Part shown: piece after piece, positions 24,152-64,000 of the stretch
Layout: every line of letters starts with the position of its first letter
Position numbering within the stretch: the stretch's first letter is position 1
Assembly (NCBI GenBank): GCA_029204225.1
Contig: CM055100.1
Location: 7,275,948 to 7,339,947, forward strand
Source of the DNA: Diphasiastrum complanatum
Taxonomy: Eukaryota > Streptophyta > Lycopodiopsida > Lycopodiales > Lycopodiaceae
Length of the DNA stretch: 64,000 nt
Reading direction: 5' to 3'
The notes under the pieces: generated by a model
Databases searched by the model: none
Seen by the model: the letters and a program-made list of their open reading frames with translations, nothing else
Told to the model about the DNA's origin: nothing
Made by a program: the position numbers and the translations under genes

Positions 24152-24159
24152 TTACCTGC

Positions 24160-25680: not shown

Positions 25681-25769
25681 ATCGTCATCGATTGTATCCC
25701 AGACTTCATTGGGTTACACATCCCATGTATACAAATTCATGCTGTCCTTTCTCTCGGATGCTCTCCCTC

Positions 25770-27655: not shown

Positions 27656-27826
<171 letters not shown>

Positions 27827-38588: not shown

Positions 38589-38600
38589 GCTCTGATACCA
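38589..38600 (-). other. Primer-binding site of the 37-40 kb Copia
   Basis: Minus strand TGGTATCAGAGC, directly inside the LTR 38601-39774. Confidence 0.85.
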
Positions 38601-39774: not shown

Positions 39775-39931
39775 TTTCAGGAACCCTACGCTGCCGCTCG
39801 GATATCCTTGGATAATTTTTGACTTCTTTCAATGTAGCTTCATCCTGCACACCTTCAATTACAGGTTCCCCTTTGAATCTCCCCTGGTACATCTTCATTT
39901 CTGATAGTTCCTCCATGAGTCCATCATCCCT
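39775..39931 (-). pseudogene. Short open fragment, possibly Copia IN-RT linker
   Basis: The minus strand reads about 50 codons without a stop (MEELSEMKMYQGRFKGEPVI ... RISERQRRVPE). The RxSERxRRxPE ending is reminiscent of the linker before Copia reverse transcriptase. It is squeezed between the Copia LTR and the palindromic LARD. Confidence 0.3.
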
Positions 39932-41598: not shown

Positions 41599-41883
41599 TG
41601 TAGCGCAGGCATCCCAAAGGGAGCCGGGAACCACGACTTAGCTTCCCAGCCTTCAACACTTGCCATCCAAACCCACTTGACATACAAGCAGCCAACTCGC
41701 CAACAACGATCAGACTTAACCAACTTAAAGTTCCAAAAACCAACATTGAGATCCAACCTGGCGCCATGCCAAATCGGGGGTCCCGACATGGGTGACTTCC
41801 CTCCAAACAAGCCGCCCGACATACATCAAACTTAACCAACTCGAAGCTTCGTTACAAACGAGTAACATCCATTCCAAGCAAGC
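41599..41883 (-). repeat. LARD copy 1 LTR, inner 285 bp
   Basis: It starts (plus view) TGTAGCGCAGGCATCCC and runs to CCAAGCAAGC, where LARD copy 2 begins. The rest of this LTR continues at 46431. The last five bases CAAGC (41879-41883) are one copy of the target duplication. Confidence 0.85.
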
Positions 41884-43114
41884 TGTTGTAAAGCTACCTT
41901 TACAAGCTTTACTTCCGGCGCCATCGGCGCCAACTATGTCCCCGGCGCCAGCAGCGCCCCTGCTGCTCCCGGCGCCGCTCCCGGCGCCACTGTGACCAGA
42001 ATCCAGCCGGCGCCAAGTTCCTATGGCTGAAAATCTTTGATCGGTTCTAGCGAAGTCCAGAGAGCTCAGATCGATGTGCAATCACCTCACACGATCTAGG
42101 CATGATTAAAGGAAGCCTGGGGATCAATAAAATCTAGAGAGAGAAAATGACTTTCTAGAAAGAGAAAATCCTAGAGAGAGAAAAATGTGCTTTACCAGCT
42201 TGGGTAGAGTGCTTGGTATGAGGGGGGGGTGCCGAATCACACCAATACTATAGGGGAGTGCGGGTTGCGACTCAGGGCGAGCTCCAACCAAGTCTCAGCC
42301 TCCCTTGCTGGAATGTTGTCATGGCTCTCGCCTTGGCATGCTAGCGCCCCGGAGACTAGGGTCGGTCACACACTTGAAATGTAACCTTCTCAGATTTATC
42401 AATAAAGTGGGATTTTCCTCAAACTGACTCTGATTACCTTCTGGGTTTCAATGTTCGGTAAAAGCGCCAGTTGTAAGGCCGCTTTCAAAATTTTTAACTT
42501 GGCACATAGCTGAGGGTCGTATCCCGGGACGCCAGCGGTATGCCGTCGGGACCATTCGGTCCGTGGCGCCAGCGGTATGCTGTCGGGACCATTTGGTCCA
42601 GGAACTGGTTGTTTCCATATCTGTCGCGGCTTGTGGTTCTAAGTATTCCTTGCATGAACGTGAATGGGTTAAGCTCTTGGGGAACGGGCTCTAACCTGTC
42701 GGCTGAGTTGGATGGCTTGCTTGGGTGGATGTTACCTGTTTATGGCTGTCCAGTCTGGCGAGGCGCCAGGTTGGCTTCCAGCGCTCGTGACGAAGCTTTC
42801 AGTTGGTTAAGTCTGATGTAAGTCAGACCGCTTGCTTGGAATGGATGTTACTCGTTTGTAACGAAGCTTCGAGTTGGTTAAGTTTGATGTATGTCGGGCG
42901 GCTTGCTTGGAGGGAAGTCACCCACATCGGGACCCCCGATCTGGCATGGCGCCGGGTTGGATCTCAATGTTGGTCCTCGGAACTTCAAGTTGGTTAAGTC
43001 TGATCGTTGTTGGCGAGCTGGCTGCTTGTATGTCAAGTGGGTTCGGATGGCAAGAGTTGAAGGCTGGGAAGCTAAGTCGTGGTTCCCGGCTCCCTTTGGG
43101 ATGCCTGCGCTACA
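41884..43114 (+). repeat. LARD copy 2, 5' LTR
   Basis: TGTTGTAAAG ... CGCTACA. The end has an 8-bp hairpin (TTGTAAAG / CTTTACAA) around a 4-base loop. Then comes a GC-rich block with many GGCGCC palindromes (41918-42016). Further on there is a polyadenylation-like AATAAAG near 42402 and repeated GTTGGTTAAGT blocks (42802, 42873, 42990). Confidence 0.9.
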
Positions 43115-45955
43115 TGTGGTATCAGAGCCGACTGGCCGGTCAGCTATGTGGATCTCACGGAAATGGCCACGGTTTGGGGTTCATCAAGACAACTGTTGTG
43201 CAAGGTGCTGCCCACAGTGTAAGCACGGGTGCGTCCACGGTCCGGGTGCTCGACAGAACGGGGGACTTGATGAGTCAAGGTGCTGCCCTTGAGGTGTAAG
43301 CACGGTCAGTTCTCGCGGTTCGGGCCTGGCGCTGTCTGCATGTAGGACGGATGAGGCAAAGTGCTGCCTAGGGAGGTGAAAGCACGGTCTGTACCTTGTG
43401 GGGTGCGGGGCGACATATTCAAACTGTACGGGTTAACCATTGATACAGAGATGCTGTTCGAATTCGGGTGTAAAGCACGGGTGGTTAGCTGCTGGTGCGG
43501 GATAGCTGCCGATCGTTTAGCTATAAGGGCTATCGACCAAAAAGTGGTGGGGCGTGACTAAGGCAATGTGATGCTTAATGGTGAAAGCACGAATAGTTGG
43601 AGGGGTGTCCTATGTGGGCTGATTCCGTGATCGATTTGCATGGGCGTGGCCAGGCAAAGGTCCGTTGGCAGGACCATCTCAAAAGGGGACCTTGCCTTTG
43701 TTACTTGTTAGTAAACCTGCCTGAGTGTCTTACTTGTACGTATTCGTGGTGAGTCTTAGTACTCGTGCTTTGCCTGGTTTGCATGATTGCTTGTGATACA
43801 AGGAGCTGATGGCTCGAGAAGGAACCTTTTCTTTTGAAGGCTGATACCATCAAACAAAGAGGACTACAGAATCTGTGGGGCGGATTTGCAGTTCAAGTAC
43901 TCACACGTGAACGACAACGAAACAACTCAATGTTTGCAAAGGATGGATGGCTAGCCTGTTTCTTGGGTTAGTTTCATTTGCGACAACGCCCACCAGACGC
44001 AAGCAGGAAGTCAAAAGCTGGAAAGGGCCATTTCAGGGGAGATCTTCTATGGAGCAGTTGGTCTTCATTTTGGGATGGCCACCTTCGGAACTAAAACTCA
44101 CTGAGCATGGGCGATATCCAGAATCTGTGCGGCGGATTTGCAGTTCAAGTACTCGCACGTGAACGACAACGAAATGACTCAATGTTTGCAAAGGATGGAT
44201 GACTAGCCTGTTTCTTGGGTTAGTTTCATTTGCGACAACGCCCACCAGACGCAAGCAGGAAGTCAAAAGCTGGAAAGGGCCATTTCAGGGGAGATCTTCT
44301 ATGGAGCAGTTGGTCTTCATTTTGGGATGGCCACCTTCGGAACTAAAACTCACTGAGCATGGGCGATATCCAGAATCTGTGCGGCGGATTTGCAGTTCAA
44401 GTACTCGCACGTGAACGACAACGAAATGACTCAATGTTTGCAAAGGATGGATGACTAGCCTGTTTCTTGGGTTAGTTTCATTTGCGACAACGCCCACCAG
44501 ACGCAAGCAGGAAGTCAGAAGTTGGAAAGGGCCATTTCAGGGGAGATCTTCTATAGCAGTTGGTCTTCATTTTGGGACGGCCACCTTCGGAACTGAAACT
44601 CACTGAGCATGGGTGATATCCAGTATCAGTTGGGTTTTTCTTCAAAGGGGAAAAGACTAGGATCCTCTTCAGAGATTGGCAACAAGTTGGATCGAGCCAT
44701 AATCCTAGCAGATGGGAAGCAAAGTGTTGGAAAGGCTTTTGTCCGAAGAACTCTACTCTAAAGTCCGATCAGCTGATTTATTAAGTGGAGGGGAACTATC
44801 ACACACACCTCTCTCTTGGGGCAAATTTTGAATTAAAGTTGATCAAAATGGGGGCAAAGTCAAGGTGACCTAGCCATACTCACACGAGGAGACTGGCGAA
44901 CTTTGGACCTAATAAGTTGACAAGTTTTTGTTGTGGAAAGGAAAGTTTGTTATGGGCTTTCTCTGGACCAGCAATGATGAGGAAACATATGAGTACGCTG
45001 GCTTGTGTTACGTGTAAGGCAGCTGATCAATGAAGGAACTGAGAAAGTTGAGTCTTGCATGAGAGACTTGGTATTTCGAACGGACGCTAAGGGACAGTTC
45101 GCGTTGAGATCGGACTAGTGCAAACTCTGGGTGCATGTGTCTGATTCAAAGAGAACTACTTGAAGCCAAGCTCGATGTACACTTCTTGTTTTGACTGTGA
45201 GGCAACTGACCAGTGATGGAATTGTGAAAGTCAAGTTTTGCGCGACGGACATGGTGCTTCAAACAAACGCGAAGAGATAGTTCGAATGCGGATCAAACTG
45301 GTGCGATTCTTTGGCTTTCCTCGAGGTCAATGGTTACATTTGGGCTGATTCAAAGAGCTACTTCAAGCTAAGTGAGAGGTGCATTGCGGAGTACTCAATC
45401 TTTGCCTACCTTAAAGAGCCAAGATGGAAAAGTATCAAGATCAGGCTGGGACAAGGAGAGAAATCAAGGTGCAGAAGCAACAAGGCACGAAGTGGACCAT
45501 AAAGTGTGCAATCAAACGATAAATCCTTCGGCTCAGGGAGCCTTGATACTTGTGCGGAACTGAACAAATCTGGAGCTCAGGGAGCTCAACACAAACTGCA
45601 TCAAGGACAAATCAGGAGCTCAAAGGAGTTCCAAAGTCGAAAGTCAGAAGCGATAGGGGCGAACATTTCAAAGAAAGGCCTCTGTCACCAGTTAATAAGG
45701 TTCTCGGGTTTTACGAAAGCGATATCAAATCTACGCTTTTCCCAGACAAAGATATATTTTCAAGTTATGTAATTTTTCAGTACAAAGAGCTGAGCCTCCG
45801 ACTTGTGGTGTGCCAGTTTCAATGTTAATAAAAAGTGGCCAGTAAATTGAGTACTGTGCCAAGTAGCTTAAATGTATAGTTATTTTAATTGGGAGACACC
45901 TTTACTTTAATCTGACATCTGATGAGGACATCAGATTTTATAAAGGTGGGGTGGA
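43115..45955 (+). other. LARD copy 2 interior, non-coding
   Basis: It begins with the primer-binding site and ends with the polypurine tract. 43130-45037 is mirrored in copy 1; 45038-45955 has no mirror in the window. Small frames such as 45311-45502 and 45506-45828 have no recognised domain. No zinc knuckle, protease or polymerase motif was found in any frame. Confidence 0.8.
43868..44622. repeat. Three tandem 252-bp repeats
   Basis: Units start at 43868, 44120 and 44372 with AGAATCTGTGSGGCGGATTTG. The period is exactly 252 bases (84 codons). A minus-strand frame (MRLVGVVANETNPRNRLVIH...) and a plus-strand frame recur in each. Copy 1 of the LARD has two such units (about 40345-40846). Confidence 0.92.
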
Positions 45956-46430
45956 TGTTGTAAAGCTACCTTTACAAGCTTTACTTCCGGCGCCATCGGC
46001 GCCAACTATGTCCCCGGCGCCAACAGCGCCCCTGCTGCTCCCGGCGCCGCTCCCGACGCCACTGTGACCAGAATCCAGCAGCGCCCCTGCTGCTCCCGGC
46101 GCCGCTCCCGGCGCCATTGTGACCAGAATCCAGTCAGACCGCTTGTGTAGCGCAGGCATCCCAAAGGGAGCCGGGAACCACGACTTAGCTTCCCAGCCTT
46201 CAACTCTTGCCATCCGAACCCACTTGACATACAAGCAGCCAACTCGCCAACAACGATCAGACTTAACCAACTTGAAGTTCCGAGGACCAACATTGAGATC
46301 CAACCCGGCGCCATGCCAGATCGGGGGTCCCGATGTGGGTGACTTCCCTCCAAGCAAGCCGCCCGACATACACCAAACTTAACCAACTCGAAGCTTCGTT
46401 ACAAACGAGTAACATCCATTCCAAGCAAGC
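45956..46430 (+). repeat. LARD copy 2, 3' LTR: deleted and partly inverted
   Basis: 45956-46132 repeats the LTR start, including a duplicated GC-rich block. It then jumps to GTCAGACC, which lies some 940 bases into the LTR. From 46141 to 46430 the last 285 bases of the LTR plus a GCTTG are present in inverted orientation. Intact LTR order is therefore lost. Confidence 0.8.
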
Positions 46431-47389
46431 GGTCTGACTTACATCAGACTTAACCAACTGAAAGCTTCGTCACGAGCGCTGGAAGCCAACCTAGCACCTC
46501 GCCAGGCTGGACAGCCATAAACAGGTAACATCCACCCAAGCAAGCCATCCAACTCAGCCGACAGGTTAGAGCCCGTTCCCCAAGAGCTTAACCCATTCAC
46601 GTTCATGCAAGGAATACTTAGAACCACAAGCCGCGACAGATATGGAAACAACCAGTTCCTGGACCAAATGGTCCCGACAGCATACCGCTGGCGCCACGGA
46701 CCGAATGGTCCCGACGGCATACCGCTGGCGTCCCGGGATACGACCCTCAGCTATGTGCCAAGTTAAAAATTTTGAAAGCGGCCTTACAACTGGCGCTTTT
46801 ACCGAACATTGAAACCCAGAAGGTAATCAGAGTCAGTTTGAGGAAAATCCCACTTTATTGATAAATCTGAGAAGGTTACATTTCAAGTGTGTGACCGACC
46901 CTAGTCTCCGGGGCGCTAGCATGCCAAGGCGAGAGCCATGACAACATTCCAGCAAGGGAGGCTGAGACTTGGTTGGAGCTCGCCCTGAGTCGCAACCCGC
47001 ACTCCCCTATAGTATTGGTGTGATTCGGCACCCCCCTCATACCAAGCACTCTACCCAAGCTGGTAAAGCACGTTTTTCTCTCTCTAGGATTTTCTCTTTC
47101 TAGAAAGTCATTTTCTCTCTCTAGATTTTATTGATCCCCAGGCTTCCTTTAATCATGCCTAGATCGTGTGAGGTGATTGCACATCGATCTGAGCTCTCTG
47201 GACTTCGCTAGAACCGATCAAAGATTTTCAGCCATAGGAACTTGGCGCCGGCTGGATTCTGGTCACAGTGGCGCCGGGAGCGGCGCCGGCGCCGTTGGCG
47301 CCGGCTGCAACAGGGGCGCTGCTGGCGCCGGGGACATAGCTGGCGCCGATGGCACCGGAAGTAAAGCTTGTAAAGGTAGCTTTACAACA
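46431..47389 (-). repeat. LARD copy 1 LTR, outer part
   Basis: It resumes copy 1's LTR exactly where 41883 left off (GGTCTGACTTACATC) and ends GTAGCTTTACAACA at 47389. Adding 41599-41883 gives 1244 bp, close to the 1231 bp of the other LTR. Beyond 47389 lies Copia protease sequence, so copy 1 itself inserted into a Copia. Confidence 0.85.
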
Positions 47390-48230
47390 ATTACTCTCTT
47401 CTCCTGCAAATAATTCTCATATGTTGAAAATACTTTTACGTTGAAGGTCATGTGTGCCATCGCCCCTGAGTCCAAATACTAGACTTCATCGTTGTTCCTT
47501 TCTCCTAAGTCTGCTACGTCAATCACCATTGGAATGTTTTCCCTCCACCATTTCTTGGGAGTGACCTTTGTTTTGACCTTTTGTACATTATCTCCAAGAG
47601 CCATGAGAGCTATGTTCTCCTTTGTCTACTTTGCTTCATCCATGTTCACTTGCACCGCTCCCTTTTTCTTCATGTCCTTAGTTTTCTTGGCACATTCCCT
47701 TGCAACATGGCCAGGATTGTGATAGTAGTAGCAGATGATCTGATTTTTCTTCTCGAACTGTTGTTTTGCTTGGCCTTCTTCCGCACACTGACCTCCTTCC
47801 CTCTGTTGAGCTTTCTTTGAACTTTGCCTTTGATCTACCTTTAAATATCCACTCCTATCATTCAGTGTCAGCTTTCCAATGAGTGCTAACTCATCCCTCA
47901 TCGATTGGCTCTTACTTCTCCCATCTTAATGAAGTAGCCTCTGTTTGACAACATTCAATTCCAGATCCTCCACCCTGCTATTTTCAAGGATCGTGATCAG
48001 AGGACCATATGATATTGGGGGACTATCCAGGATCGTAAATACCAAATGATTCTTCTCTATTGTTGCACCCGCCGCTTCCAGTTGCCACTCGATTGCCTTC
48101 ATTCTTTCCAAGTGTTCCTGCAATGAATCAGCCTCGCTCATCATCAAGGAGCCAGTTTTTTCCTTAGCATCAACACATTTGTCATATTTTTCCTTTGTAT
48201 ATGCCCTCCAATATGTCCCAGACCTGCTTC
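47390..48230 (-). pseudogene. Copia gag and protease start, broken
   Basis: Minus-strand frames. 47926-48147 is gag (DSLQEHLERMKAIEWQLEAA and ILDSPPISYGPLITIL). 47626-47901 has a zinc knuckle CYYYHNPGHVAREC, in which the second Cys is Tyr. 47390-47475 is the protease core (DSGAMAHMTFNVKVF), cut by the LARD LTR. Stops separate the pieces. The leader and primer-binding site upstream (48231-48362) and the LTR 48363-48891 belong to it. Confidence 0.8.
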
Positions 48231-48349
48231 ACATCCTTTGCATCCTACACCCAAAAAATTGATAGAAAATTGTGAAAAACTACGTCCTAACTTGAATAGA
48301 ATCAGAATTTTTCATACATTAGATGATTATAGCATTCAAAACTTAGTTT

Positions 48350-48362
48350 GGCTTTGATACCA
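48350..48362 (-). other. Primer-binding site
   Basis: Minus strand TGGTATCAAAGCC, directly inside the LTR 48363-48891. Confidence 0.8.
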
Positions 48363-48891
48363 TGACAAAAATCAACAAGTTCACATGTGTGGGATGTACA
48401 ATAATTGTGTGAATGATCCTACTAAGCTTTGTGTTAGCACATAAATCAATTGAGATTCTATGGCTAGGTCACAATCTAGAATGCTAATTATCAAACTATG
48501 AACACTTTCACACATGTGGGAAAAGTACATAAATATTCAAGTATGAGAGAAAGCAATTTAATCTTAAAAGTGCAAAATCCAAATTGACAAGAAGATAGCC
48601 TCAATGCTAATTCATCATCAAAATTTGTGAGAGATCCCACATACATATATAGTGATGGTATCGTGCTCATGGTAGATATGCAACTCTATCTACCTACTTT
48701 CTACATGTGTCATTTCTAGACTACAAATGTACAAATCTTCATGCATGTCACAATACAAGTCTTAGTTTGCCTTGCATGTCACATTTGTCAAAATTAGACA
48801 TGCTTCATGTGTAGTGGCTCGAGTTCTACTAGGCCAATTTTGGCATTTTCAAGTTGTAATACTACATGGATGTTGTAAAACTTCATCAACA
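48363..48891 (-). repeat. Copia 5' LTR, 529 bp
   Basis: Minus strand TGTTGATGAAG ... TTTTTGTCA. It carries CACATGTGTG and CACACATGTG near its inner end. It interrupts the integrase of the next Copia at 48892. Confidence 0.75.
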
Positions 48892-50568
48892 CCAAAGGTC
48901 AAGATAGATGGCTTTTTGATTTTCAACAACCGTGGTCTGAAACCATGAACCAACATTTCTTCCTCTTTAGAAGATATATCCAACAATATCTACTAAATTC
49001 ATCAATGCAAGTCACAAACATATTTGTTCCTCCATTACTCAAAGAATAGTACAATGCACATCCAAATGTACTAAGTGAAATGGAATCTTAGATCTTGAGC
49101 TAGATCTAGAATAACACAACCTTTGAGACTTTGACATTGAACCGAGCTCACCAACTTGCTTCTTTGCCTTCAAACCACCATAGTTACTACCAACATATCC
49201 ATCAAGTTTGTAGAGCTCACCTTGTCTCTTGCCTTGGGCAATCAAGACTTTTGATCAAGCAAAAATCACCAACAAATTCTAGTTTAAGCCCCTTTTCAAC
49301 CATTTGACATACACTAAGAACATTCTTAGTAAGGGTAGGTATGAATAAAACATTCTTCAAGCTTACATTACTATTTGTTGATGAGAGAAAAATAGGAATA
49401 GTATCAATTCCCTTGATAACAACTTTACCACCATTTGCCATGTTGATGACTCTCTTTCATAAGGCACCAAAGAAGTGAAGACGTACTCATTGTGACATGT
49501 CATATTAAAGCTTTCTCCACTATCAATCCATCATGGATAATATCTCCATCATCAAACAAGAAGACATAAAAATAGAACCACTTGAATTTTGCTCATCAAC
49601 ACCATCATCATCAAAACTGAAATTGCATTGCTTCTCACCTTGATCTTTTTTCTTCTTGAGCCAATCGCAAGGAAAATGTTCTTTGACTCCACAATAGAAA
49701 CATTTCAACTTTGACTGTCATTTTTACCCTCAAAAGAAAATGACTCACCTTGATCTTGTCCTTTAGACCACTTGCCTTTGTCCTTGCCCTTGAACTTGAT
49801 CTTGCCCCTCTAGAACATAGATTCCTCCTCTCCAACTTGAGATGTAGAAGATGATCTTCCTCTTGCTTGGAGTCTAAATTCTTCAGCCACCAAGACCTCT
49901 TGCAAGTCCTCCACACTTGGAAACGTCTTTTGAATAGAAAAATTTTCCACCAAGTTAGCATGATCATCCAGTAAGCCATTAAGAACAACTTGAACAAGCT
50001 CCACATCATAATGCTTTCACCAATACATGCTAATTCATCATTCAAAACTTTAACATTCAAAACAAAAGCATGAGCACTTTCATTATTCTTTTGAAGACTT
50101 TGAAATTTTTGGCTCCTTAGAGTTAGAACCCTAGATGTAGACTTGGACTCATAGACCTTCTTCAAAGTTTTTCAAGGCTCACGAGATGTTGTGCACTTAT
50201 CAACTTCCTTGAGAAGTTCATTAGTCACATTCATCTTGATCACATGAAGAGATTTCTTTACCCTCCTATCATAATTTCTCTTAAGATGCCAAAGGTCTCT
50301 CCTCCACACCTACAACAATATCCATGAACTCATTCATCTCTAGCAAAGACTCCATCCTCACCTTCCAAGTTGAATAGTTGCTTGAGGTAAGCCTATCATT
50401 GCCTTCCAACATGAATCCACTTGAGGTTGCCATGTTGTAATGATTGATCTTCTTCCTTGAAATTATTCTAATGCGCTTAGCACTCTCTTGAAAATCAACA
50501 AATGATGACAAGAAGAAATCACAAATATTTGCAAACAATCTAGCCTCTCTTTTTCTCTCTTCTAGCAA
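48892..50568 (-). pseudogene. Copia gag to integrase start, degenerate
   Basis: 50281-50568 is the gag start (RLTSSNYSTWKVRMESLLEM). 49635-50165 has a YESKSTSRVLTLRSQKFQSL block. 49523-49708 has a zinc knuckle remnant CFYCGVKEHFPCDW. 49217-49441 is the protease-to-integrase spacer (LKNVLFIPTLTKNVLSVCQM). 49039-49245 is the integrase finger area. 48950-49030 reads MFVTCIDEFSRYCWIYLL, the first catalytic Asp strand of integrase, and is then cut by the LTR at 48891. Multiple frameshifts are present. The protease core itself is not readable. Confidence 0.8.
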
Positions 50569-51033
50569 TTCCTAGCACGTAGAATCTTGATTTCTTGATC
50601 ACAATAGATCTAAACAAATGTGATGAACTTTTTCCAACAACTAAGATTGAAACACACTATTGAAAAAGTCTAGCAACCTAAAATCAAGATATCCTATCAA
50701 ATTTAGAGCCTCACCAAAAATGCAAAATATTGAATCAAGCAAATTCTACATGCAAAAGCTAAAATCTAGATATCTCATCTAATAGAATATAGCATGCATA
50801 ATCATGAGCAATTTTTGTCTCCACATTCCAGTAATTGGATTAAAAAAAAATCCTACTCCACGTGATTTGACCTAAAATGATGCTAGGATCACAAAGATCC
50901 ACTTGCTACACTTGAAAATGCTTGATTTGAGCTAGAAACCACTCCAACTCCTCATAGAATTGATGGCGCCCTTAAATAAACCTCTAGATTTGGCAAATCC
51001 ACCATATTTATCCAGAAACCTGCTCTAATACCA

Positions 51034-51681
51034 TGTGATAAAATCAGATTCAAAACATGCCTAACGGATCATTAGATCTTTAGGCAAAGGACGCACATCT
51101 AGAATCATTCACGAGCTAGAAATCATGCACTACCATGCTAGAACTTGGAAATAGATGAAGATTTGATCAAAATCACTAAGATATGATACAATACTATTTT
51201 TTTTTATACAAAAGCATTAGCACATTACCCTTCACATGTGTGAAATCAAGTACAACAAGAAAAATCACATTCTACACATTAGAACTCAAGATATCATGAG
51301 AAATACGCAAGAGATAGACATAGAATCAAAAGAGAAAAGTTCTTCATACAAAATGACAACATGAAGATCATTTCTCCACTTTTTTACAACTATTTATACC
51401 ATCCATAATGCCATTTGGCCAGTTTCCCTAAACTTGCCCTAAAATGACAACTTCTAGGTACTTCACTGAAAACCTAGAAATAAGTGACTAGTTTCAATGT
51501 ATCTCAACTAACCAATAGTAGTAGCTCTAGATCCGACCTTATCTACTTATATACTTGCTATTATAAATAGGAAACTATTTTTAGTCCTTATTGACATTAA
51601 GAAATATATCTTTGAGCTTAAATTTCACATTGGCCTCCAAATTGCCAATTAAACCAACTAAACTAATTCACATTTTTCACA
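51034..51681 (-). repeat. Copia 5' LTR, 648 bp, with primer-binding site
   Basis: Minus strand TGTGAAAAATGTGAATTAG ... TTTTATCACA. The primer-binding site TGGTATTAGAGC (51022-51033) has one change from the consensus. It carries CACATGTGTG near 51234. The relative at 1470-2108 shares order and motifs. Confidence 0.78.
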
Positions 51682-53067
<1,386 letters not shown>

Positions 53068-53197
53068 AGCCTCTCTCAAAAATTTCAAAATTGATCTCCA
53101 AAAAGAGCCTAGGACCCCAATTTTCTCATTTCGTGCATTTTTTTTATTCCAAAATTTTTGCGTGGCAATGCCACGAACTCTCCCCGAGTGAGGACTT

Positions 53198-53650
53198 TCA
53201 ATGCTCAATTGGCACTAATGAAATAGTGTCATGATGTTGTTAGGTTCAATGAGGACTTTAAATCTTCCATTTGCACTAATGACATATTTTGGTATTACTG
53301 GTAGGATGTTCCCGATCACATAGATCTAGGTACATAGAATCAAAATCCATTTGATAAAGTTGTTTATGGTAGTCCTTTTTACCAATAATGCTTACCAACT
53401 CGGATCCGAACAAGGATAAATCCCTTGACCTTGGATTCCTTGACCCAGGATCACAGTTATGAACTCCCCATTAACTCTATTGAATCCTACTCCCAATCGG
53501 CATTAATGAAATAGTGGTATGATGTTCTTAGATCTATATGAGGATTCAAAATTATTTATTTGTACTAATAAAAAAGTAGTATGATGTTCCTAGGTCCATA
53601 TGAGGACTCGAAATTCTCAATTGGCACTAATGAAATAGTGGTATGATGTT
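53198..53650. repeat. Degenerate repeats of about 61 bp, two clusters
   Basis: A unit of the type GGCACTAATGAAATAGTGGTA ... ATGAGGACT recurs near 53205, 53266, 53497, 53557 and 53619. About 200 unrelated bases separate the first two from the last three. Confidence 0.7.
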
Positions 53651-53991
53651 ATGTTATTTGCCATAAAAAAATAAGAAAAGGATGATTTTTTTTTTATATT
53701 ACTAATGGAACTATTAATAAATGGGTAGGGTTGGCTTTGTGTCGTTGTAGTAACAATTCCTTCACGGAACAAGATAAAAAAAAATATAAATAATTTTTCT
53801 ATTGGAGCTAAGTATTCAAGCCAAGAACTCTATGTAATGTGAAAAGTACAATACTAAGGACCATAAATGGATCTTTGAATGATCCACAAGGTGATTGTAT
53901 GCTTGTTAAACAATCTATCAGAAACTAGTCATCAGAAAACAAGATCTAGTTTAGCAGCTTGATAGGAAACAAGTAGAGACAATCAAAGCAT

Positions 53992-54528
53992 TGATCAAAT
54001 AGTCTAATCCAACTCCGCAGGTGTGGAAATAAGGCTGTAGTATGGCCTGTAGATAGTGTTTACAAAGTGCCAAAGCTGGGTTTCATTGGAAATCAAGAGT
54101 AATCACCATACAATGAGAGGAAACTCGAGTTTCTCCTTGAGGCTCCAAAAAGTTTCTATCTTCTCACTATGGAGAATGGGAATACATAGTAAAACACACT
54201 TCCTTTGCAAAGTTATGTGAAAATCCAGCATGCAATAAGGAAGTAGACTCCACTCTCTTGCCCTAATGTGAAAACCCTTGCCTAGATCCAAGAGTCATGC
54301 TTGGTAGGTGCATGGTAGGTACAAATCTCATCATAAATCATGGTCTAGATCCTACAAAGTAGGAATCACTACCAAATAGACACAACCACTCCTCTTGACT
54401 CGTGGTAACCTACTTAAGGTGTGTATGTACAAGTGGCACTTTAACCATTCAAGTAACCAACAAACAATATTGACAAAATATACAATATTCTACATGGCTA
54501 GATTTGCCAATGTAGGCAATTTTTCACA
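53992..54528 (-). repeat. Copia 3' LTR, inner end certain, outer end estimated
   Basis: The minus strand starts TGTGAAAAATTGCC right after the polypurine tract GAGGAGGAG (54529-54537). The outer end near 53992 (TGATCAAATAG) is a guess from TG/CA rules and a G-box-like GCAGGTGTGG nearby. Confidence 0.55.
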
Positions 54529-55551
54529 CTCCTCCTCAAATCTAGCCTTGGAGATCACAATGCTTTTATCAATAACTCCAATTGAAGATCTAAGCTTGAC
54601 AAATGAATCTTTAGGTAAAGGTTTAGTAAACAAATCAGCCAAGCAACTTGATGATGGCACGTGTTGGAGCTTGATCTCTTTAGCTTGCACTTTTTCCCTC
54701 ACGAAATGATGAGCAATTTCGATGTGTTTGCTCCTTGCATGGAATGTAGGATTAGTTGCAAGTGATTGGGCTGATTGGTTGTCACAATAGATGATAGGGA
54801 TCTCCTCCTCCATGACATGAAGCTCCACCAATAGCCTTTTGAGCCACAAGACCTCCTTGCATGTTGATGTCAAGGCCTTGTATTCGGATTCTGTGGAAGA
54901 TAGGGAGATGGCATCTTGCTTTTTGGAAAGCCATGATACTACTCCATCACATAGAAAGGTGGCAAAGGCACTTGTTGATCTTCTATCCACTTTGTCACCT
55001 GCAAAATCCGAGTCACTATAGGCTCTTAAGCCAAGATTAGTTCCTCCATACAAAATACCAAAGTTCTTAATGAATGAAATGTATCTAAGAACTCTTTTGG
55101 CCATCTTCCAATGTGAAACTAGAGGACTTTGCATGAATTGGCTTAACTTTCCAACACTATAACTAAGATCAGGTCTAGTTATAGTTAAATAGATCAAGGA
55201 GCCAATAAGCCTTCTATGTAATGTGATGTCCTCAAAGGATGCTTCATCACAACCAATAGATGCTTTTACATGTTGCTCCATTGGTGTCTCAATGCCTTTA
55301 CAATTCTTCATTCCAAATCTATCTAGGATGGATGTAGCATATTTAGATTGACAAATGAAGCTAAAATCACATCCTCTAATAACCTCTATTCCAAGAATGA
55401 AGCTCAATAGACCGAGATCTACCATCCTAAACTCTTTTGCTAAAGCAATTTTTACATCCCTAATTCCATCTAGATCATTACCACTCAAGATAATGTCATC
55501 TACATACAAAACAAGAATAATGATCATGCCATCATGAAAACTTATATACAA
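54490..55551 (-). pseudogene. Copia RT end and RNase H, 353-codon frame
   Basis: One undamaged frame begins just before LYVDDIILSGNDL, the catalytic site of Copia reverse transcriptase. It continues with GLLSFILGIEVIRG, TRPDLSYSVGKLSQFMQSP and RNase H blocks (AYSDSDFAGDKVDRRSTSAF, SLSSTESEYKALTS, IYCDNQSAQSLATNP, RSKHIEIAHHFVRE, LADLFTKPLPKDSF). It ends inside the 3' LTR. The frame is well preserved, but the upstream two thirds of pol are absent beyond 55560, so it is a 5'-truncated copy. Confidence 0.88.
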
Positions 55552-55559
55552 TGATCTGA

Positions 55560-56034
55560 CTTTACTACCACACCTTTTCCTTCTATGTACGACTAATTAG
55601 AGTAATAGAAAGGAATATAAATAATATACTAATCATCAAAAAATGATTCATAAGAAGGAAATGAACCATGGAATTGGTTCATCCTTTAACCCCATTCATT
55701 TCTTCACTGGTTTTTCATGTGAAGTATTTCAGATGGAGCGAGAAACAAAAAACCTATGAGCTTCGTGCTAGATATGCCACAACGTAGTTGACTCTTGATT
55801 TTTGTTCTATTTTCCAATGATAGGTGCTTTTTGGGTCCTAGCGGTCCCTAAGTACCGTTATTAGCTACAGACCCGCTTCTCGTTTTCACTTTCTTACCTT
55901 ATTCCTTAGGCATTCCCAGAAAGCTTTCTCGATTGCTTTTGTTGTTATATGTTGGATGGTTTTTCTCTCTTTGTGACCTATGGTGCTTGTAGAGGTTGGC
56001 TCTTGATCCGCATATTCTAGATTATGAGATGCAT
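55560..56034. other. Unidentified stretch upstream of the truncated Copia
   Basis: Less AT-biased than the surroundings. The plus strand near 56000-56055 reads LALDPHILDYEMHEVLWLPV without a stop, which might be an exon scrap. No match recognised. Confidence 0.3.
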
Positions 56035-56270
56035 GAGGTCTTATGGTTACCAGTTGAAATGATGTTGTTTTGTTAGAACGTTAAGATACTTCCTTTAAGA
56101 GTGAACCGCATCGATGGTCTTCTAGCGTAGGTAATTAGATTGCTTACACATGAATCCTATAATGCTTGTAGATTTCGATGATCGTGGCATGCACTATGGA
56201 TTGTGCTCTAGGTGTGGCATCAAAACAAAAACAACTGTGTTCAATTACCTAGGCCCAAGAGGATATTTCG
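56035..56270. repeat. Dispersed repeat, inverted partner of 17985-18210
   Basis: Matches the other copy over about 220 bases. Here it is not joined to an eIF3d fragment and instead runs into an LTR scrap at 56285. Confidence 0.8.
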
Positions 56271-56284
56271 CCTTAGATCTATTC

Positions 56285-56514
56285 CAAACCCTAGATCTCA
56301 AGTGACTAGATTCAATGTATCTAAATCAACCAATTACAATAGATCTATATGCGACCTTATCAACTTGCCTAAGTTGTCAAAAATAGTAAATCAACTATTC
56401 TTAGGCCTAAATAACATTGTAAAGTTTATCTTTAAGTTTTAAAATAAATATTGACCAGAATTGCCAATTAAACTCAACATGATAAATCTCAAACTAGTTG
56501 ACAATTTCTCACAA
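56285..56514 (-). repeat. LTR scrap of the 51034/1470 Copia family
   Basis: The minus strand starts TGTGAGAAATTGTCAACTAG at 56514. Blocks such as GTGACTAGATTCAATGTATCT and CCTTATCWACTT match 51481-51550. Confidence 0.7.
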
Positions 56515-56925
56515 TAATTAGTTTGGCTCTAGACTTTAATACATTTTTTCAGTGGCCCATAATAAAGTTTTAACAAAGTGCATGCCATTTTACTTCTTGT
56601 TAAATACAAAGATCCTACAAGTATTTCTTAATCATTATTAAATCCTAACATATATCAAAATGTACAAATTTAACACTATGATATTGATTATTTCATTATT
56701 ATGATTTTTTGTGTTTTCTAGTTGTTGCCAGTTTTTCTAAAATCTTGCCTTCCAGATTTTGCATCTCAATTTGTTGGCAAAATAATACGATTCACATTAA
56801 TAAATCATTTTGTTGACTTAATAAAGCTATGGCGCAAACGTACGCTTTATATGGATCTACCTACTTTACTACACATATATTGTTTGTTTTTTTTTTTTTG
56901 ATAGCTTAATTTCACTATTAGATAT

Positions 56926-57300
56926 TCACAAATGTACAAATACAAAAAACGACTTCCATGGCCGAAAATTACTGTAACTTACAGAACTGTCAAAAGCCCA
57001 AAAGTTAGGCACTCTAGCATACCACGCAGGGTAGCAGTCTAAAAACAACTTTAAGTAGAATGTAAAAAGTACATAGCTAGCCGAATACAAGCCGTGGCAG
57101 ACAAAGAGGGGGGGTTCCCCCTCAAAAACCTGATGATTCCTGGCTGTCCAAATCCTCCACAAGACCGCTAGCCTGCACACATGCCAAAGGGTAAGAGTAG
57201 AAGAATCTGTCAGAACGGATTCCCCCCCGATAAGATAGTAGCAGTGTCCATAGAAAAGGTGAGACCCCACCGCGAGAAGATGTGGCTCAACTCCAACCAA
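56926..57300 (-). pseudogene. LINE reverse transcriptase tail (zf-RVT), remnant
   Basis: A 124-codon frame includes LTLWHVCRLAVLWRIWTARN followed by HQVFEG. This is the WxIWxxRNxxxFE signature of the zf-RVT segment at the end of plant non-LTR (L1-type) polyproteins. The upstream zinc-binding residues are not visible. It is a short dead piece. Confidence 0.6.
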
Positions 57301-57727
57301 ATATGTCGATAACAGTGAAGGAATTGTTTGAATTTCATAAAAGTTGTCAATTTTTTAAGAGTCAATTTACTGTAAGTATTTCACGAAGTTAGTTTATGGA
57401 GAATGATGCTAGTTCCATTCCTATACTTTGACGGCTTTCTCGAACAATGACCCAAAATTTAAATCTATTGAAATCTAACGAAAAAGAACAAATGCCTTGT
57501 AAAGCGTTGACATATAAAAATTTGAGATGTATTGAATTATTTTTTTTTTGAGCCTTCTCCTTATGATTCTTCAGGCTTTTAGCCCATGATTGTTAAAAAG
57601 CTTGCAAAATTAGGTTTTATGTTAGATTGAAAAAAAAGTTTTTCTTAAGCTTTGCTCATAAGAATAGATTCATCTATTTGCTTTCTAATTAAAGGTTGCG
57701 ACGTTTTTGGATTTAGACGTGCTGCTC

Positions 57728-57731
<4 letters not shown>

Positions 57732-57802
<71 letters not shown>
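57732..57802. repeat. (GA)n microsatellite
   Basis: A GA run of about 35 units, about 880 bases upstream of the LCIB-like start codon. Confidence 0.95.
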
Positions 57803-57804
<2 letters not shown>

Positions 57805-57945
57805 AATACACTCTTGGACGCTTATATTTCATATAATTGATGTTGGGTTGATTTTAACGCCTTTTTGGGCTCTATATTGAGTTATGCTAAAAAAAAACTT
57901 GCATTTTTTTTAAAGCCGTTGGTTTTTTGAAAACTTTTACTCAAC

Positions 57946-57972
57946 AGGGTATATATATGCTTGTATAAAAAT
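57946..57972 (+). promoter_or_regulatory. Candidate TATA region of the LCIB-like gene
   Basis: GGTATATATATGC followed by TGTATAAAAA lies about 710 bases upstream of the ATG at 58680. A plausible 5' UTR intron acceptor (TTGTTGCAG near 58248) lies between. This is inference only; no transcript evidence is available. Confidence 0.3.
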
Positions 57973-58679
57973 CCATCGAGGATCGAGGATTTTATGAACG
58001 GTTTTAGGGTAATTACGCCGGTTCTTTTCCTATTGTTTGCCGGTTTTCCCAGGACTGGGCCAGGGCCTAGCCCCCACAGCCCAGGTCAACTCGCCATTGA
58101 TTGGTTCGTCTGAGTCTTCAGTGTTTGTTCTGATCTGCGTTTTTTGAAGCCTGTAAAGCAAGTCTGAATGCCATGGCCTACCATAATTCATGAGCAAATA
58201 GATTGATTTCCTGTTCATTTGTCCAAATCTGCTGGTGTCATTGTTGCAGCAAAGATGGTTGAATCATAACTGAGGCAGATGTGGGAAGTGCAATGTATCT
58301 GGTCAGATAGGGAAGGATTGAAAAGGTGCAGCTCATGGGGGGGCAATTGGCACACCAAGGGCCAACGGATCCAGATAATTTAGCAGTGGTGGATTGTGGT
58401 GTGGCCCCGCTTCGTCCAGATTAGACAGAAATCTGAAGGAACATGCGCTTGGAGATTGTTTGATAGTTAAATTGGAGTTTTAACCATTGAGGTGATGCAT
58501 TTCAGTTGAATGCTTCCATCTTGGATTTTAAAGATTTGTTGCTTCATGTTTATACAATACAAATGTGACGGAATTCGAGGACTGTAGATGCTTTTTCATT
58601 GTTGTGTAGTTTGTGTACTGCTAGATTGAACTTGTAGTTTGTCTTGCCGCTTGTTGAAGGCAATTCTTTCTGTCATACA

Positions 58680-60969
58680 ATGAGTTCGCAACCTCTCCAG
58701 GCGTCAGAGGCTGCTTTGGAAACCATTTCCAAGTATTTTCCAATTGCCTTGGTAGACACCGTTTTCTTCGGCGCCTTGTTTAATGCTCTCGAGGCTTTGG
58801 GATTTAAAAGGTGATCTCACAAATGAGCATCTCAGGTTGTCTTTCTAAAAATCTTTAATATCAGAGGTTACTTCCGCAATATTAATTTAGCAAATTTGCG
58901 GGTTGATCGAGATCGTTTTCTTAAATTGCTCACGTTGCACAGTGATACGCTGTAGATTATTTTGAGCGGGTCTTCAAAATTTCAATCTTATCTGAACTTG
59001 TTTCAAAATGAACAGTGATAACTCCATTGCGATAGTCAACACTTGCCGAGACGAGCTTGCGCGACCTCTTTCCAACAGTTTCGACAAGGTTAACGCCGGC
59101 CCTTTCATAAGCCATTCTCAATCATCGCATTAGAACCTAGAAGCACGTTAACTATCTAAGTTGATAATGTGGAGAAACAAAAAGGAGAAGCTAGGAAGGG
59201 GGGTTCAACTCACCTTCTCTAGTCCGAATTATACATCATTTTGAGTATGAATTGTGAACTTCTTAATGGCCACATTCTGATTGTTACCATTATGGTGGAC
59301 TTCCAGATTAATTGCTTGTACGGCGAGATTATTCGCCAGGATGCAGTATAGTCTTTACTTCTTATGGCTAATTGAGCTTTACGTCATTGTTGTGTTACGT
59401 GTAGACATATGGTAACTCGTTCAATCTGTCGGGTATAGCTGGTATCGTGACGGCTGGAACACTTGGCTTCAAGGCTGCCATATCACATTCTCCAGTGTCT
59501 GAAGATGGAAAGGAAAAGTGTAAGTTCTTGAAATTTATGACAGAAAACGTTTGAACGTTGATTGTTAGACAGCTACACTTACCCTTTCTTGGCTGGGTAA
59601 ATGCGTTGACGACAAGTTGGCAATGATGAATGCGACAATGTGAATCTCTGTAAAATCTTCGCAAACACATGCACGCTGATAGGCCTGATTACTTCAGGTA
59701 TAATATGGATATATAAGCATGTGCTTTATCAAGTGTAGCACTGTAGTTTGCAATCATTAGTGTAGGAGAAACAGGGATAGCAGTTCGATCTCTAATTGGT
59801 TCCTGCAACTGGAATCTGCAAAATTTCACCTCCCTTGTACATAATTTGCTGCCCTTAAAACTTTGACCTTCAATAGTTGCGAATGATTGTTTGCAGATGT
59901 GTTTTTCGGGTCTACACATGTTGCGGTGGATGAGAAGGGTATGTTGCATTTGGCCTTACTTTCAAAATTCATGGGTTAAACTCAGTGTTCATTGTGGCAC
60001 TACACGTCTGCATAGAACGTATAATTTGAATAAAGACATACTAACTGAAAACTGGATTATTTTACCTCCTCCAGGAGTCGAGGGTCAAGTCCTGAGAGAA
60101 GGCCGACCGAAGCCATCAAATGCATGTGGAGCCATCGTGGCTATCAAGCAAGAATTTGATAGCAACATACAGCAGGATGGTGTGGTTCACGATGACAATG
60201 TTGAGTACGGAATTTTGAAGAAGAAGCTCTTTGCAAAGGCTCGTGGCAGTTGCACTTTCTCTCATTATGAGCTCACAGCATAAGTACCTAGTGTTCGGTA
60301 GCTTAGCTTTGCATTGTCATCATACACAGCTTGAAGTTTGATTCATTACCTACATAACTGCAGAATCTTGGCGCTAATCCAACCATCTTTGAATTGACAA
60401 AGGCCACATGTGAGGTAGGTGGCAGAGATTTTGCTTCTAATTATTAGCTCTCCAATCTACAAGTACTTACTGATATTGCATGTTTAGTCCGCCCCTTGGA
60501 TTTGAATGTTTCTTCTAATACGTTGCTCAGATTATCACTAGTGACATTGAGGACCATATCTCTAAAACTGTCGATCCAAAAAAGTCTGACTATGCTGTGA
60601 TCACGGGAGTACAAATTCATGCGGGAAGGCTTGATGGCTCCTGGATTCCAGATGCTGTTATTGACTACATTGCACCTTGTAAGAGTTGGTATTCTTATGC
60701 AAACGTACTAAAGCACATTATAATCCAGATTATTAGATTCAGATTTTTGTAAAGCCAAAGTTCAGCAGTCCACAAATTCTAGTTAAAGGTGAATATATGT
60801 CAAAAGAGAAAAAGAGTGGGCTCGGAATGTATTATCTCTACCCTTATCTTTATTTCATTGACTCGTAAATAAGCTAAATGCAGTGACTTCCTATGTTGTG
60901 ATCGGAGGAGAACGTCATGAACTCAAGACAGATGGGAAAAGCTACTTCCCAGAGAAGACGGCAGCGTAG
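58680..60969 (+). CDS. LCIB/LCIC-like protein (carbonic-anhydrase-like), 8 exons
   Basis: Predicted exons: 58680-58810, 59016-59088, 59405-59519, 59897-59938, 60075-60238, 60364-60414, 60531-60678, 60884-60969. Together they give 810 nt, an unbroken 269-residue frame. All introns are GT-AG except intron 5, which appears to be GC-AG. Family hallmarks in order: TCRDELARPLSNSF (Cys54, Asp56), YGNSFNLSGIAGIVTAGTLG (from residue 70), YVFFGSTHVAVDEKG (His114), EGRPKPSNACGAIVAI (Cys138), DYAVITGVQIH and a C-terminal TSYVVIGGERHELKT. In known LCIB proteins two Cys and one His bind zinc in a beta-carbonic-anhydrase-like site; the three ligands and the Asp seem present. Algal LCIB works in CO2 recapture around the pyrenoid. 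Here the protein starts almost at the core, with no obvious transit peptide, so a cytosolic location is likely. The ATG is supported by an in-frame TAG at 58635. Function in CO2/bicarbonate conversion is inference. Confidence 0.82.
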
Positions 60970-62023
60970 ACAATGCACTGGGAGGATTGCTATGATGGGG
61001 AAAGCTTTTTATTTGCTACGAAATATTAGTAAATCGTTTGTCTCTACTCAGAAGAAAACACTGTCAGGTTAAGTTTTATCATAAGCTGACGTTGCAAGGC
61101 GCAGCTACTAAACACAAATGATTTACCTTGATGTAGTCCAAGCAATGATCGGTCTTTCTGCATGATTTTCTCTGTTATCTTTCTGCAGTTTATTGCAAGC
61201 TGTGATGCACAAATGTAGTCTGATGCTTTAACGGTTGGATATTAGCATCCGACATAAATCTTTTGTTTATCATTACTTTCCTATGTCATGAAGCTGGTTC
61301 TATCCTGACATATACATATCACTAATCTTTTTGTTTATCACTAGTTTGCCATGTCATGGAGCTGGTTCTATCCTAACATATGCATATCTTTCCGAAATGC
61401 TTAGCCAAAATCTCGGTCGATCTCATGCTTACACGCCGGTTTGAAAATAAGAAGAACTGAATTTTAACATGCAAGTGTATCTTTATTGCAATGGTTTATG
61501 ATATCGAGTCTATGGACCATGGCTTAGTTTGTGATCCTGATGCTCGTAGAGGACAACCTTTTGAACTAAATGATGGCCAGATCAATCCTAAGTTGGGTTT
61601 GTCTAAGTTGAATTTATTGTTTGGCATTGCTTCATAAGTGTTGGGTTCTAGTAAGGACAATGACATTGTAGAACAATCATGTAGATGCATTTCTAGGGGA
61701 TGGGGCATCACCGATGTGGTCCCGAGAGAGGCCCTCCACATATCTCATATGAAATGTATCTTTGTAAAGAATTTGGGCCTAAGGGCCACGCACACACACG
61801 TACCCACGTGAGCCGCTTACTGGGATCCCAACCTTAGTCGCCTAGCCACCCGCCATCCGTCTAAACCCCAAAAGGGTTGGAACCAGGGAATAGAGGATAT
61901 AGAGAAGCCCCAACTTATATATGGGAGATCTCAAGGCAAGCAGTTACTTATGGGATATTGAGAATTCTCAAGGCCTTCACTGGGCGCTCAAGCCCACGAC
62001 ACTTTCCTGTGTGTGGCTTGCAA
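60970..62023. other. 3' flank of the LCIB-like gene, no further gene recognised
   Basis: It holds a tandem duplication (61257-61393) and GC-richer text near 61770-61870. The minus-strand frame 61496-61741 and plus-strand frame 61877-62107 have no known motif. No clear AATAAA was found just after the stop codon. Confidence 0.4.
61257..61393. repeat. Tandem duplication of about 68 bp
   Basis: TTGTTTATCAYTA...ATGTCATGRAGCTGGTTCTA...ACATATRCATATC occurs twice in a row, about 290 bases after the LCIB-like stop codon. Confidence 0.8.
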
Positions 62024-62227
62024 CTAAACATTCCGCAACAAGGCCAGCTCCTGTATCTGTCTAAGAGACGGTTTGAAAAGGTTGCCGAAGCAGACGTAGA
62101 GAACTGATGAAGCTTCTTGATCGTTCAACCAATTTAGAGCTTTCTGGACCTCTGGCTTTGAGGTAGATCCATCATCGGAGGTTTCTGCAATAGCCAAACA
62201 TGGGCCTATTGGAAATATCTTTACCAC
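62024..62227 (-). pseudogene. UDP-glycosyltransferase fragment
   Basis: Minus-strand 67-codon frame with IFPIGPCL, then ALNWLNDQEASSVLYVCFGN and QIQELA. These are the segments just before the PSPG box in plant family-1 glycosyltransferases, which attach sugars to small molecules (the usual form is CLxWLDxQPxxSVxYVSFGS). After QELA the frame goes to LLRNV and a stop. The PSPG box and the acceptor-binding N-terminus are absent. About 60 of the usual 450-500 residues are present. Confidence 0.7.
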
Positions 62228-62234
62228 GTCAATC

Positions 62235-62840
62235 TAGCATCAAAGAGATGAAGTTAGTTGTCACACATAGATTCATTCCCATGAGAGCGATAGTATAGTT
62301 CAGATTTTAGCATGAATGGAAGATTCACATCTAACTCTAACATCCATTAACCCTAAGCATTAACACTACATCCACTAACACTAGATCCACAATGAAGATA
62401 GCTTACTCTTTCTCTCTCTCCCTTTCTCCCTCATAAAAGTATAAAAAATATGCAATCCCAATAACAATCAAATCTAACAATTAGCAAAACACAAATAAAG
62501 CATGAGAGATGGAGGAAAAGTAAGAGAGAGTAAGGACATTCATAAATCCATTTCACAAGAGAACCAACTGCTTTATTGAAATGAAGAAATGTACATGTGT
62601 AGGAACTCGAGCTGGTCCCTTTTTATAGTAGAGAAGAGGACCCTGGCCTCTGAGTCCTATTGGTCCATTTCTACCTCCCTAATTATTCAAATTTGAAAAA
62701 GAGTGGGAACCATCCAAATTGGAGGGAAACCCAACTTTATTCACTAACTAAGCAGAACCTTAGGCCCTACGACATTAAAAGTCCCGCAAAAAGGCCTAAA
62801 GTCCTTTTATTGACTTGTAACTAATCAAATAACTATGTGA
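62235..62840 (-). repeat. LTR-like region with TATA box and polyA signal
   Basis: On the minus strand CTATAAAAAGGGACC (near 62620-62634) is followed about 60 bases on by AATAAAG (near 62570). This is the U3-R arrangement of an LTR. It lies downstream of the gag frames at 62844-64000 on the same strand. TG/CA ends and a polypurine tract were not found, so the limits are approximate. Confidence 0.4.
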
Positions 62841-62843
62841 TCA

Positions 62844-64000
62844 TCAGGTTGGACTTACACACGCACAAAAAAGTGGCTCCTGATGGACTTCTGGTTCTGC
62901 TTGAGCTAACTTTTGCGCTGATACTTCTTTTGCTTTTGGCACCAACTTCAGGAACTCTCCCAATAAAATATTGATCTTACTAGACAAAATTTTCATGAGC
63001 AGTTTTGTTTGCGGTGCTTCCGGTTCAGTCATCCTGAAGGGTTCTTCATGATGATGCAACTGATCATTCATATCTGTATGTGAATTTTTCGGTGGCTGCA
63101 AAGGTGAAGAATGAACTTCGGCTGTTCACTTTAGCAGCTTCAAGTTACTCTTCTTCTTGTAGATGTTTAATCCACTGTCTCATATCCTGATATCTTCTTC
63201 TTTTTGCATGAAGATTTGGATAGTTTCCAGATGTTGTTGGTATATCAGTTAATGGCATAGAATCAGCAGGTATTGGATCTGCTACCGGTTCTTTCTGCTT
63301 TTGTGCTCTGGCTACCACCATCAAGGGTACACTTGGTTTACTTTGAGCTACTGGTCTTTGCTTGATTGTTATCAAATTTACAAGAGTTGTAGCTAGTGGT
63401 GGCTTCGGTCTTGCTGGACAGTCTTTATAGCAATGCCCATAACCACAATCACGATAGAATGGTACAAATTTCTCTTTATTTGGACATTCTGCAACTTTGT
63501 GATTTTCTCCACATGCAAATCATCCAAGTGGTGCTCTGGTCCAGTTTCTAGATGCTTATTGTTGCGCGGCAGCATAAATAGCATATTGTTCTGAAGATCC
63601 ACCTTCTTGATCATTATCATAATTCCATTGCTCGACACCTTTGTAAGGTTTTGGTTCCATCAAATTGGCAGGAGGAGCGGGGTGCTTTAGTGGGGTAGGT
63701 AAGGCTAAACGCTCCGGGTATCCAAGATTGTCGAGGTCTAGCTGCTGGATTTCCTCCATATTGTGGTTCTCAATACTCCATCTGAGCATACCATTGCTAA
63801 ACTATTCGAGGATTGAAGTTGCGAAAAGCAGTCTCATGATTAGGTGAATTACACAAATGGCATATACTGATTTCCATTCGTTTTTTCAATTGAGGATGGT
63901 CATTCACTGTGTGATTTCCTGTACAAATAGAACACCATACATTTTCCCTAGTAGGAAAAGTCTTCGCAAACTTCTCAAGTTCCTTGTTCGCTTGTCCATG
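62844..64000 (-). pseudogene. Gypsy-type gag with zinc knuckles, runs off window
   Basis: Minus-strand reading from the window edge gives CSICTGNHTVNDHP and CHLCNSPNHETAF (degenerate knuckles). Then follow frames 63556-63789 (NLGYPERLALPTPLKHPAPP) and, near 63400-63520, a CPNKEKFVPFYRDCGYGHCY-type block. The tail is basic and Pro-rich (63145-63375 and 62844-63101). Frames shift several times and a TAG lies near 63800. The style is that of Tat/OTA Gypsy gag rather than Copia. No reverse transcriptase follows before the LTR-like region, so the element is internally deleted. Confidence 0.55.

What the first reader, a model, noticed from the sequence alone, without database searches (positions are those of the whole stretch)
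58680..60969. LCIB-like carbonic-anhydrase-family gene in a land-plant genome
Eight exons join into an exact 810-nt frame that carries the ordered LCIB hallmarks (TCRDE, GNSFNLSGIAG, STHVAVD, SNACGA, DYAVITGVQIH) and the putative Cys/His/Cys zinc ligands. LCIB proteins are known from green algae, diatoms and some bacteria, and have been reported in hornworts, but are not general in land plants. Plant-like introns and surrounding plant retrotransposons argue against contamination. A compact form without transit peptide would suggest a role different from the pyrenoid one.
Basis: partly seen in the sequence, partly recalled or inferred. Interest (0 to 1): 0.88.

Follow-up and report, generated by a model that had tools for sequence, protein, structure and literature searches.

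The report
Algal-type carbonic anhydrase in a clubmoss
A clubmoss carries an intact gene of an algal carbon-capture enzyme family (LCIB) that a leading paper found on land only in hornworts; it lacks a chloroplast address and groups with a liverwort protein, so the family may be older on land and less tied to pyrenoids than thought.

The parts
58680..60969 (+). LCIB/LCIC-family (theta-type) carbonic anhydrase gene, 8 exons, 269 aa
58680..58810 (+). exon 1; start codon 58680, first in-frame upstream stop TAG at 58635
59016..59088 (+). exon 2; Cys54 (putative zinc ligand) and R55-D56-E57 (CRDE)
59405..59519 (+). exon 3; GNSFNLSGIAG, His96 (aligned with LCIB His162)
59897..59938 (+). exon 4; G-S-T-H, His114 (putative zinc ligand)
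60075..60238 (+). exon 5; Arg128 (aligned with LCIB Arg194), Cys138 (putative zinc ligand, SNACGA)
60239..60363 (+). intron 5, non-canonical GC-AG, kept in 4 of 4 copies; a second annotated isoform (P0002, same locus tag as P0001) lacks 13 residues at the end of exon 5
60364..60414 (+). exon 6
60531..60678 (+). exon 7; SDYAVITGVQIH
60884..60969 (+). exon 8 with stop TAG
57879..61749 (+). unit of about 3.9 kb shared (about 94-97%) with the copies at C9:7.11 Mb and, from about 57933, C9:8.20 Mb
35566..64000 (+). stretch found again around C9:8.36 Mb (99.6-99.8%); reaches the window's right end

Best explanation
A working nuclear gene for a compact LCIB/LCIC-family (PF18599, theta-type, beta-CA-like fold) zinc carbonic anhydrase in the clubmoss Diphasiastrum complanatum. 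Shown: gene structure, family, conserved core residues, fold of a 97%-identical paralogue, absence of an N-terminal extension, four intact copies with dN/dS well below 1. Inferred: the protein pairs as a beta-CA-like dimer, binds zinc through Cys54, His114 and Cys138, uses the Asp56/Arg55 pair (a beta-CA feature, recalled) with His96 and Arg128 to interconvert CO2 and bicarbonate, and does so outside the plastid, most likely in the cytosol (bicarbonate supply, pH buffering or CO2 handling) and not at a pyrenoid. It descends vertically from a compact LCIB already present in the common ancestor of zygnematophyte algae and land plants, kept in clubmoss and liverwort and lost in many other land plants.
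Against: No RNA-seq, localization or activity data. A review passage reports purified LCIB homologues of known structure without CA activity (PMC5876011), so conserved residues do not prove catalysis. AU tests reject none of the alternatives tried: with the zygnematophyte plastid-like rows p 0.217 and 0.117, with Spirogloea-type rows 0.156 and 0.165, with chlorophytes 0.075, with short metagenomic forms 0.088, all compact streptophyte rows together 0.43. Being short is not peculiar to this clade: 3 of 15 plastid-like-clade rows have 0, 15 and 47 residues ahead, and 57 of 189 other rows have 20 or fewer, partial sequences included. Only two species in the land clade are named (Diphasiastrum, Calypogeia); 3 of its 6 rows are unnamed. 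Absence of a transit peptide was judged from alignment and composition; no predictor was available.
Confidence: 0.72

Rival explanations
1. A plastid CA with internal or non-canonical targeting that does an LCIB-like stromal job (CO2 recapture) without a pyrenoid.
For: Chlamydomonas LCIB is stromal or pyrenoid-peripheral (PMC8825250, passages); core residues are the same.
Against: Alignment with other family members starts at about residue 8, leaving no room for a transit peptide in 6 of 6 land rows; the start codon lies 14 codons after an in-frame stop.
Confidence: 0.12
2. Horizontal acquisition (from an alga, bacterium or symbiont) in the clubmoss and liverwort lines rather than vertical descent.
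For: Patchy distribution: the only named land plants in the listed rows are Diphasiastrum and Calypogeia; AU does not exclude joining the short metagenomic forms (p 0.088).
Confidence: 0.1
3. A non-catalytic family member acting as a structural or regulatory protein.
For: A review passage reports purified homologues without activity (PMC5876011).
Against: Core positions are kept in 4 of 4 copies and 6 of 6 land rows; diatom PtLCIB3/4 are described as active in PMC9614477 (passage).
Confidence: 0.12
4. Contaminant or pseudogene.
For: None found.
Against: 67-Mb contig, four copies, introns, intact frames, dN/dS below 0.4.
Confidence: 0.02

Closest known systems
Diphasiastrum complanatum O6H91_09G010300 (P0001, hypothetical protein)
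   Same: Same family, 269 aa, 97% identity, same exon model; equals the 7.11-Mb copy of this genome
   Different: A paralogue of the window copy; 8 amino-acid differences
Calypogeia fissa (leafy liverwort) unnamed protein product (P0006)
   Same: 57% identity, 267 aa, compact, G-x-T-H, same clade
   Different: No genomic context seen
Chlamydomonas LCIB / LCIC (5k5w, 5b5x)
   Same: Same family, fold and core residues
   Different: LCIB is a 448-aa plastid protein (PMC5876011 passage), about 40% identical over the segment aligned; the clubmoss protein has no N-terminal or long C-terminal extension
Zygnematophyte plastid-like LCIBs (Closterium, a Mesotaenium-style id, and unnamed rows)
   Same: Streptophyte clade; the single-sequence hits P0007-P0015 are 45-48% identical
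   Different: 12 of 15 rows carry 92-187 residues ahead (3 of 15 are short); P-H in place of T-H before the putative zinc His in 15 of 15
Compact zygnematophyte-type LCIBs (P0099, P0124-P0130; 4 of 8 named Closterium)
   Same: 242-283 aa, at most 30 residues ahead of residue 18, G-x-T-H
   Different: 37-43% identity to P0001; separate clade (100/100)
Hornwort LCIB (Li et al. 2020, PMC8075897)
   Same: Reported land-plant LCIB with conserved active site (abstract and passages)
   Different: Not among the named rows listed here; class (compact or plastid) unknown

Membership tests
LCIB/LCIC (theta-type) carbonic anhydrases, PF18599 | Match to the family profile above the curated cut-off | tested here: met
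   177.1 bits against a cut-off of 25, residues 35-247 to profile 13-222 of 223
LCIB/LCIC (theta-type) carbonic anhydrases, PF18599 | Cys/His/Cys zinc ligands and CRDE core | tested here: met
LCIB/LCIC (theta-type) carbonic anhydrases, PF18599 | LCIB fold | tested here: met
LCIB/LCIC (theta-type) carbonic anhydrases, PF18599 | Zinc-dependent carbonic anhydrase activity | not testable with these tools
   needs purified protein
Pyrenoid/CCM LCIB (Chlamydomonas-type) | Chloroplast-targeting N-terminal extension | tested here: not met
   No extension in the window protein or the 5 other land-clade rows; judged without a targeting predictor
Pyrenoid/CCM LCIB (Chlamydomonas-type) | Host has a pyrenoid | not testable with these tools
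   Papers call hornworts the only land plants with pyrenoids (PMC7027989 section 9; PMC10473226 passage)
Compact streptophyte LCIB (class proposed here) | No long N-terminal extension and G-x-T-H before the putative zinc His | tested here: met
   6 of 6 land and 8 of 8 compact algal rows
Compact streptophyte LCIB (class proposed here) | One clade of land and compact algal rows | tested here: inconclusive
   Supported 97/86, 95/86, 94/83, but AU tests reject none of the alternatives tried

The most novel reading that the evidence does not exclude
Streptophytes had two LCIB lineages before land plants: a plastid one tied to pyrenoids and a compact, extraplastidial one. Land plants without pyrenoids kept the compact one, so the presence of LCIB in a land plant (hornworts perhaps included) is not evidence for a pyrenoid-type CO2-concentrating mechanism.
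Probability: 0.45. Interest if true: 0.75.

Novelty: new variant of a known kind. Interest (0 to 1): 0.56.

Why it matters
Li et al. [quoted passage not shown] An intact, multi-copy LCIB gene in a clubmoss and one in a leafy liverwort, groups not known to have pyrenoids, weakens the uniqueness part of that argument and gives a land-plant LCIB to test. It also offers plant engineers a compact land-plant member of an enzyme that is being moved from algae into tobacco (PMC13275658, listing and start of abstract).

Tried and rejected
Canonical GT donor for intron 5: the GT at 60284 follows an in-frame TAA at 60281-60283; phase-0 GT donors lie further upstream and delete residues conserved in relatives (isoform P0002 lacks 13 of them). 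The GC-AG join keeps the conserved VEYxxLKKK stretch and is the one in P0001.

Bacterial source: a genome-contig scan with A1 (patterns VI[TV]GVQIH and N[STC][IF][AV][LI]VN[TS]C) gave 69 pattern matches and no relative by tblastn. This is a strict test and does not show that bacteria lack the family: many short PF18599 proteins from unnamed metagenomic contigs were found. NCBIfam matched 0 of 5 proteins.

A plastid-type LCIB elsewhere in the genome: the PF18599 search of the own genome found 4 matches, all the exon-3 stretch of the same four copies; it missed the other exons, so it is not sensitive. The window protein found 24 exon matches, 6 in each of the four copies. The further search with a plastid-type protein (P0019) did not complete, so a divergent plastid-type gene is not excluded.

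Long-branch attraction: leaving out either compact clade left the other at the same place, sister to the plastid-like rows (85/46 and 90/71, weak), and leaving out the Spirogloea-type rows kept land + compact algal rows at 94/83.

Whether the four copies are real or partly an assembly artefact (uncollapsed haplotypes): not decided. The two close pairs differ in divergence (2 and 4 of 810 exon sites; 5 of 1479 and 27 of 1553 intron sites) and in relative orientation, which a simple haplotype duplication would not give.

The second look with VIA-align compared 999 chains; I read no absence from it.

Full report
Observation. The eight exons join to an exact 810-nt frame, 269 aa. Intron 5 is GC-AG; the other six are GT-AG. 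A search of a 5.8-billion-protein collection gave 18 hits among 1813 candidates, all 18 bearing PF18599; the best is P0001, Diphasiastrum complanatum O6H91_09G010300, 97% identical, same length. Pfam places the window protein in LCIB_C_CA at 4.2e-52; the best solved structures by sequence are Chlamydomonas LCIB and LCIC.

Source and copies. The window is G000:C9:7275948-7339947 of a 1.74-Gb genome. C9 is 67,473,394 bases, close to the 67,477,060-base contig of P0001, and P0001 equals the translation of the copy at 7.11 Mb; I take the genome to be D. complanatum (inference; Lycopodiales). The gene occurs four times on C9: 7.113-7.115 Mb (-), 7.335-7.337 Mb (+, the window), 8.197-8.200 Mb (+) and 8.356-8.359 Mb (+). 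All four give intact 810-nt frames with the same splice dinucleotides (GC donor in 4 of 4). The window and 8.36-Mb proteins are identical; the 7.11-Mb copy differs from the window at 8 residues, the 8.20-Mb copy at 6. dN/dS is 0.22-0.38 in the five pairs with amino-acid changes. The window and 8.36-Mb copies share at least 28 kb (window 35566-64000, 99.6-99.8%); the window shares only about 3.9 kb around the gene with the 7.11- and 8.20-Mb copies.

Relatives and tree. After the clubmoss come three unnamed 267-aa proteins (62-64%), the liverwort Calypogeia fissa (57%, 267 aa; taxonomy), then unnamed and Closterium rows at 45-48% and below. A profile search gave 368 hits, of which the best 120 were listed. 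A second gave 108 hits, all listed, and revealed a compact algal form (P0099, P0124-P0130; 4 of 8 named Closterium, the rest unnamed) and four proteins with SM ids that I recall as Spirogloea's. The only named land plants among the listed rows were Diphasiastrum and Calypogeia; many rows have no name. Hornwort LCIB, known from print, was not among the named rows, so absence here is weak evidence of loss. The groups below are my choice from the hits. In a 53-row tree rooted on chlorophytes the six land rows (window, P0001, Calypogeia, three unnamed) are one clade (100/100), sister to the compact algal rows (97/86), within streptophytes (100/100); a 62-row tree with short metagenomic forms agrees (95/86). 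AU tests reject none of the alternatives tried (p 0.075 to 0.43). Each long compact clade, with the other removed, takes the same place, though weakly supported (85/46, 90/71). The residues before the putative zinc histidine are G-x-T-H in 14 of 14 land and compact algal rows, in 1 of 189 remaining rows (a second has T without G; 8 are gapped) and in 0 of 4 Spirogloea-type rows (P0002 left out).

Compactness. 6 of 6 land rows have 17-19 residues ahead of residue 18. Of 15 rows in the zygnematophyte plastid-like clade, 12 have 92-187 residues ahead and 3 have 0, 15 and 47; of all 189 other rows, 57 have 20 or fewer, partial sequences included. So shortness is typical of the land clade but not peculiar to it; the motif and the tree set the class apart.

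What is in print. Li et al. [quoted passage not shown] Zhang et al. [quoted passage not shown] their supplementary figures were not seen. So LCIB outside hornworts has been claimed in general terms. In the listings and passages seen I found no paper that names a lycophyte or liverwort LCIB, a compact class, or the Diphasiastrum gene. Searches: LCIB with land plants (51 papers, 20 listed), liverwort (4), lycophyte (5, 4 listed), hornwort/pyrenoid/Anthoceros (at least three of four terms: 41, 25 listed), Klebsormidium/streptophyte/Zygnematophyceae/Diphasiastrum/Calypogeia (at least two of six terms: 558, 25 listed), bryophytes and carbonic anhydrase (5), Selaginella (4, 3 listed). The library is open-licence and lacks most subscription papers. 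PMC10473226 and PMC13159521 (passages) name hornworts as the only land plants or single land lineage with pyrenoids. PMC8825250 (passages) was read for LCIB localization. Jin et al. 2016 was not held.

Verdict. It is a new variant of a known enzyme family: intact, multi-copy and in a plant group not known to have pyrenoids. The strongest consequence, that land-plant LCIB need not mean a pyrenoid-type CO2-concentrating mechanism, awaits hornwort sequences, localization and activity data.

Noticed in passing
window 39929-47036: GC-rich (45-52% per 2-kb step from 40001 to 48000) block with three overlapping inverted-repeat pairs of 891-1476 nt, 97-100% complementary; perhaps a fold-back or composite transposon.
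   Followed up: partly
window 7228-11296, 23726-31871, 54490-55596: Retrotransposon ORFs: Ty1/copia type (RVT_2) at 7231-10743 and 54493-55596; RVT_1 at 24163-25377 and Retrotrans_gag/aspartyl protease at 28511-29713, Ty3-like.
   Followed up: partly
window 35566-64000: Left breakpoint of a duplication of at least 28 kb, 99.6-99.8% identical, found again about 1 Mb away on the same contig; recent segmental duplication or assembly duplication.
   Followed up: partly
window 62024-62233 (-): 69-aa ORF that by eye resembles a plant UDP-glycosyltransferase fragment (recalled motif); no Pfam match.
   Followed up: partly
P0202-P0206: Metagenomic proteins listed with ankyrin-repeat domains together with PF18599, an unusual combination.
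   Followed up: no
P0172, P0183: Metagenomic PF18599 proteins listed with an additional PF00330 or PF00440 domain; may be gene-fusion artefacts.
   Followed up: no
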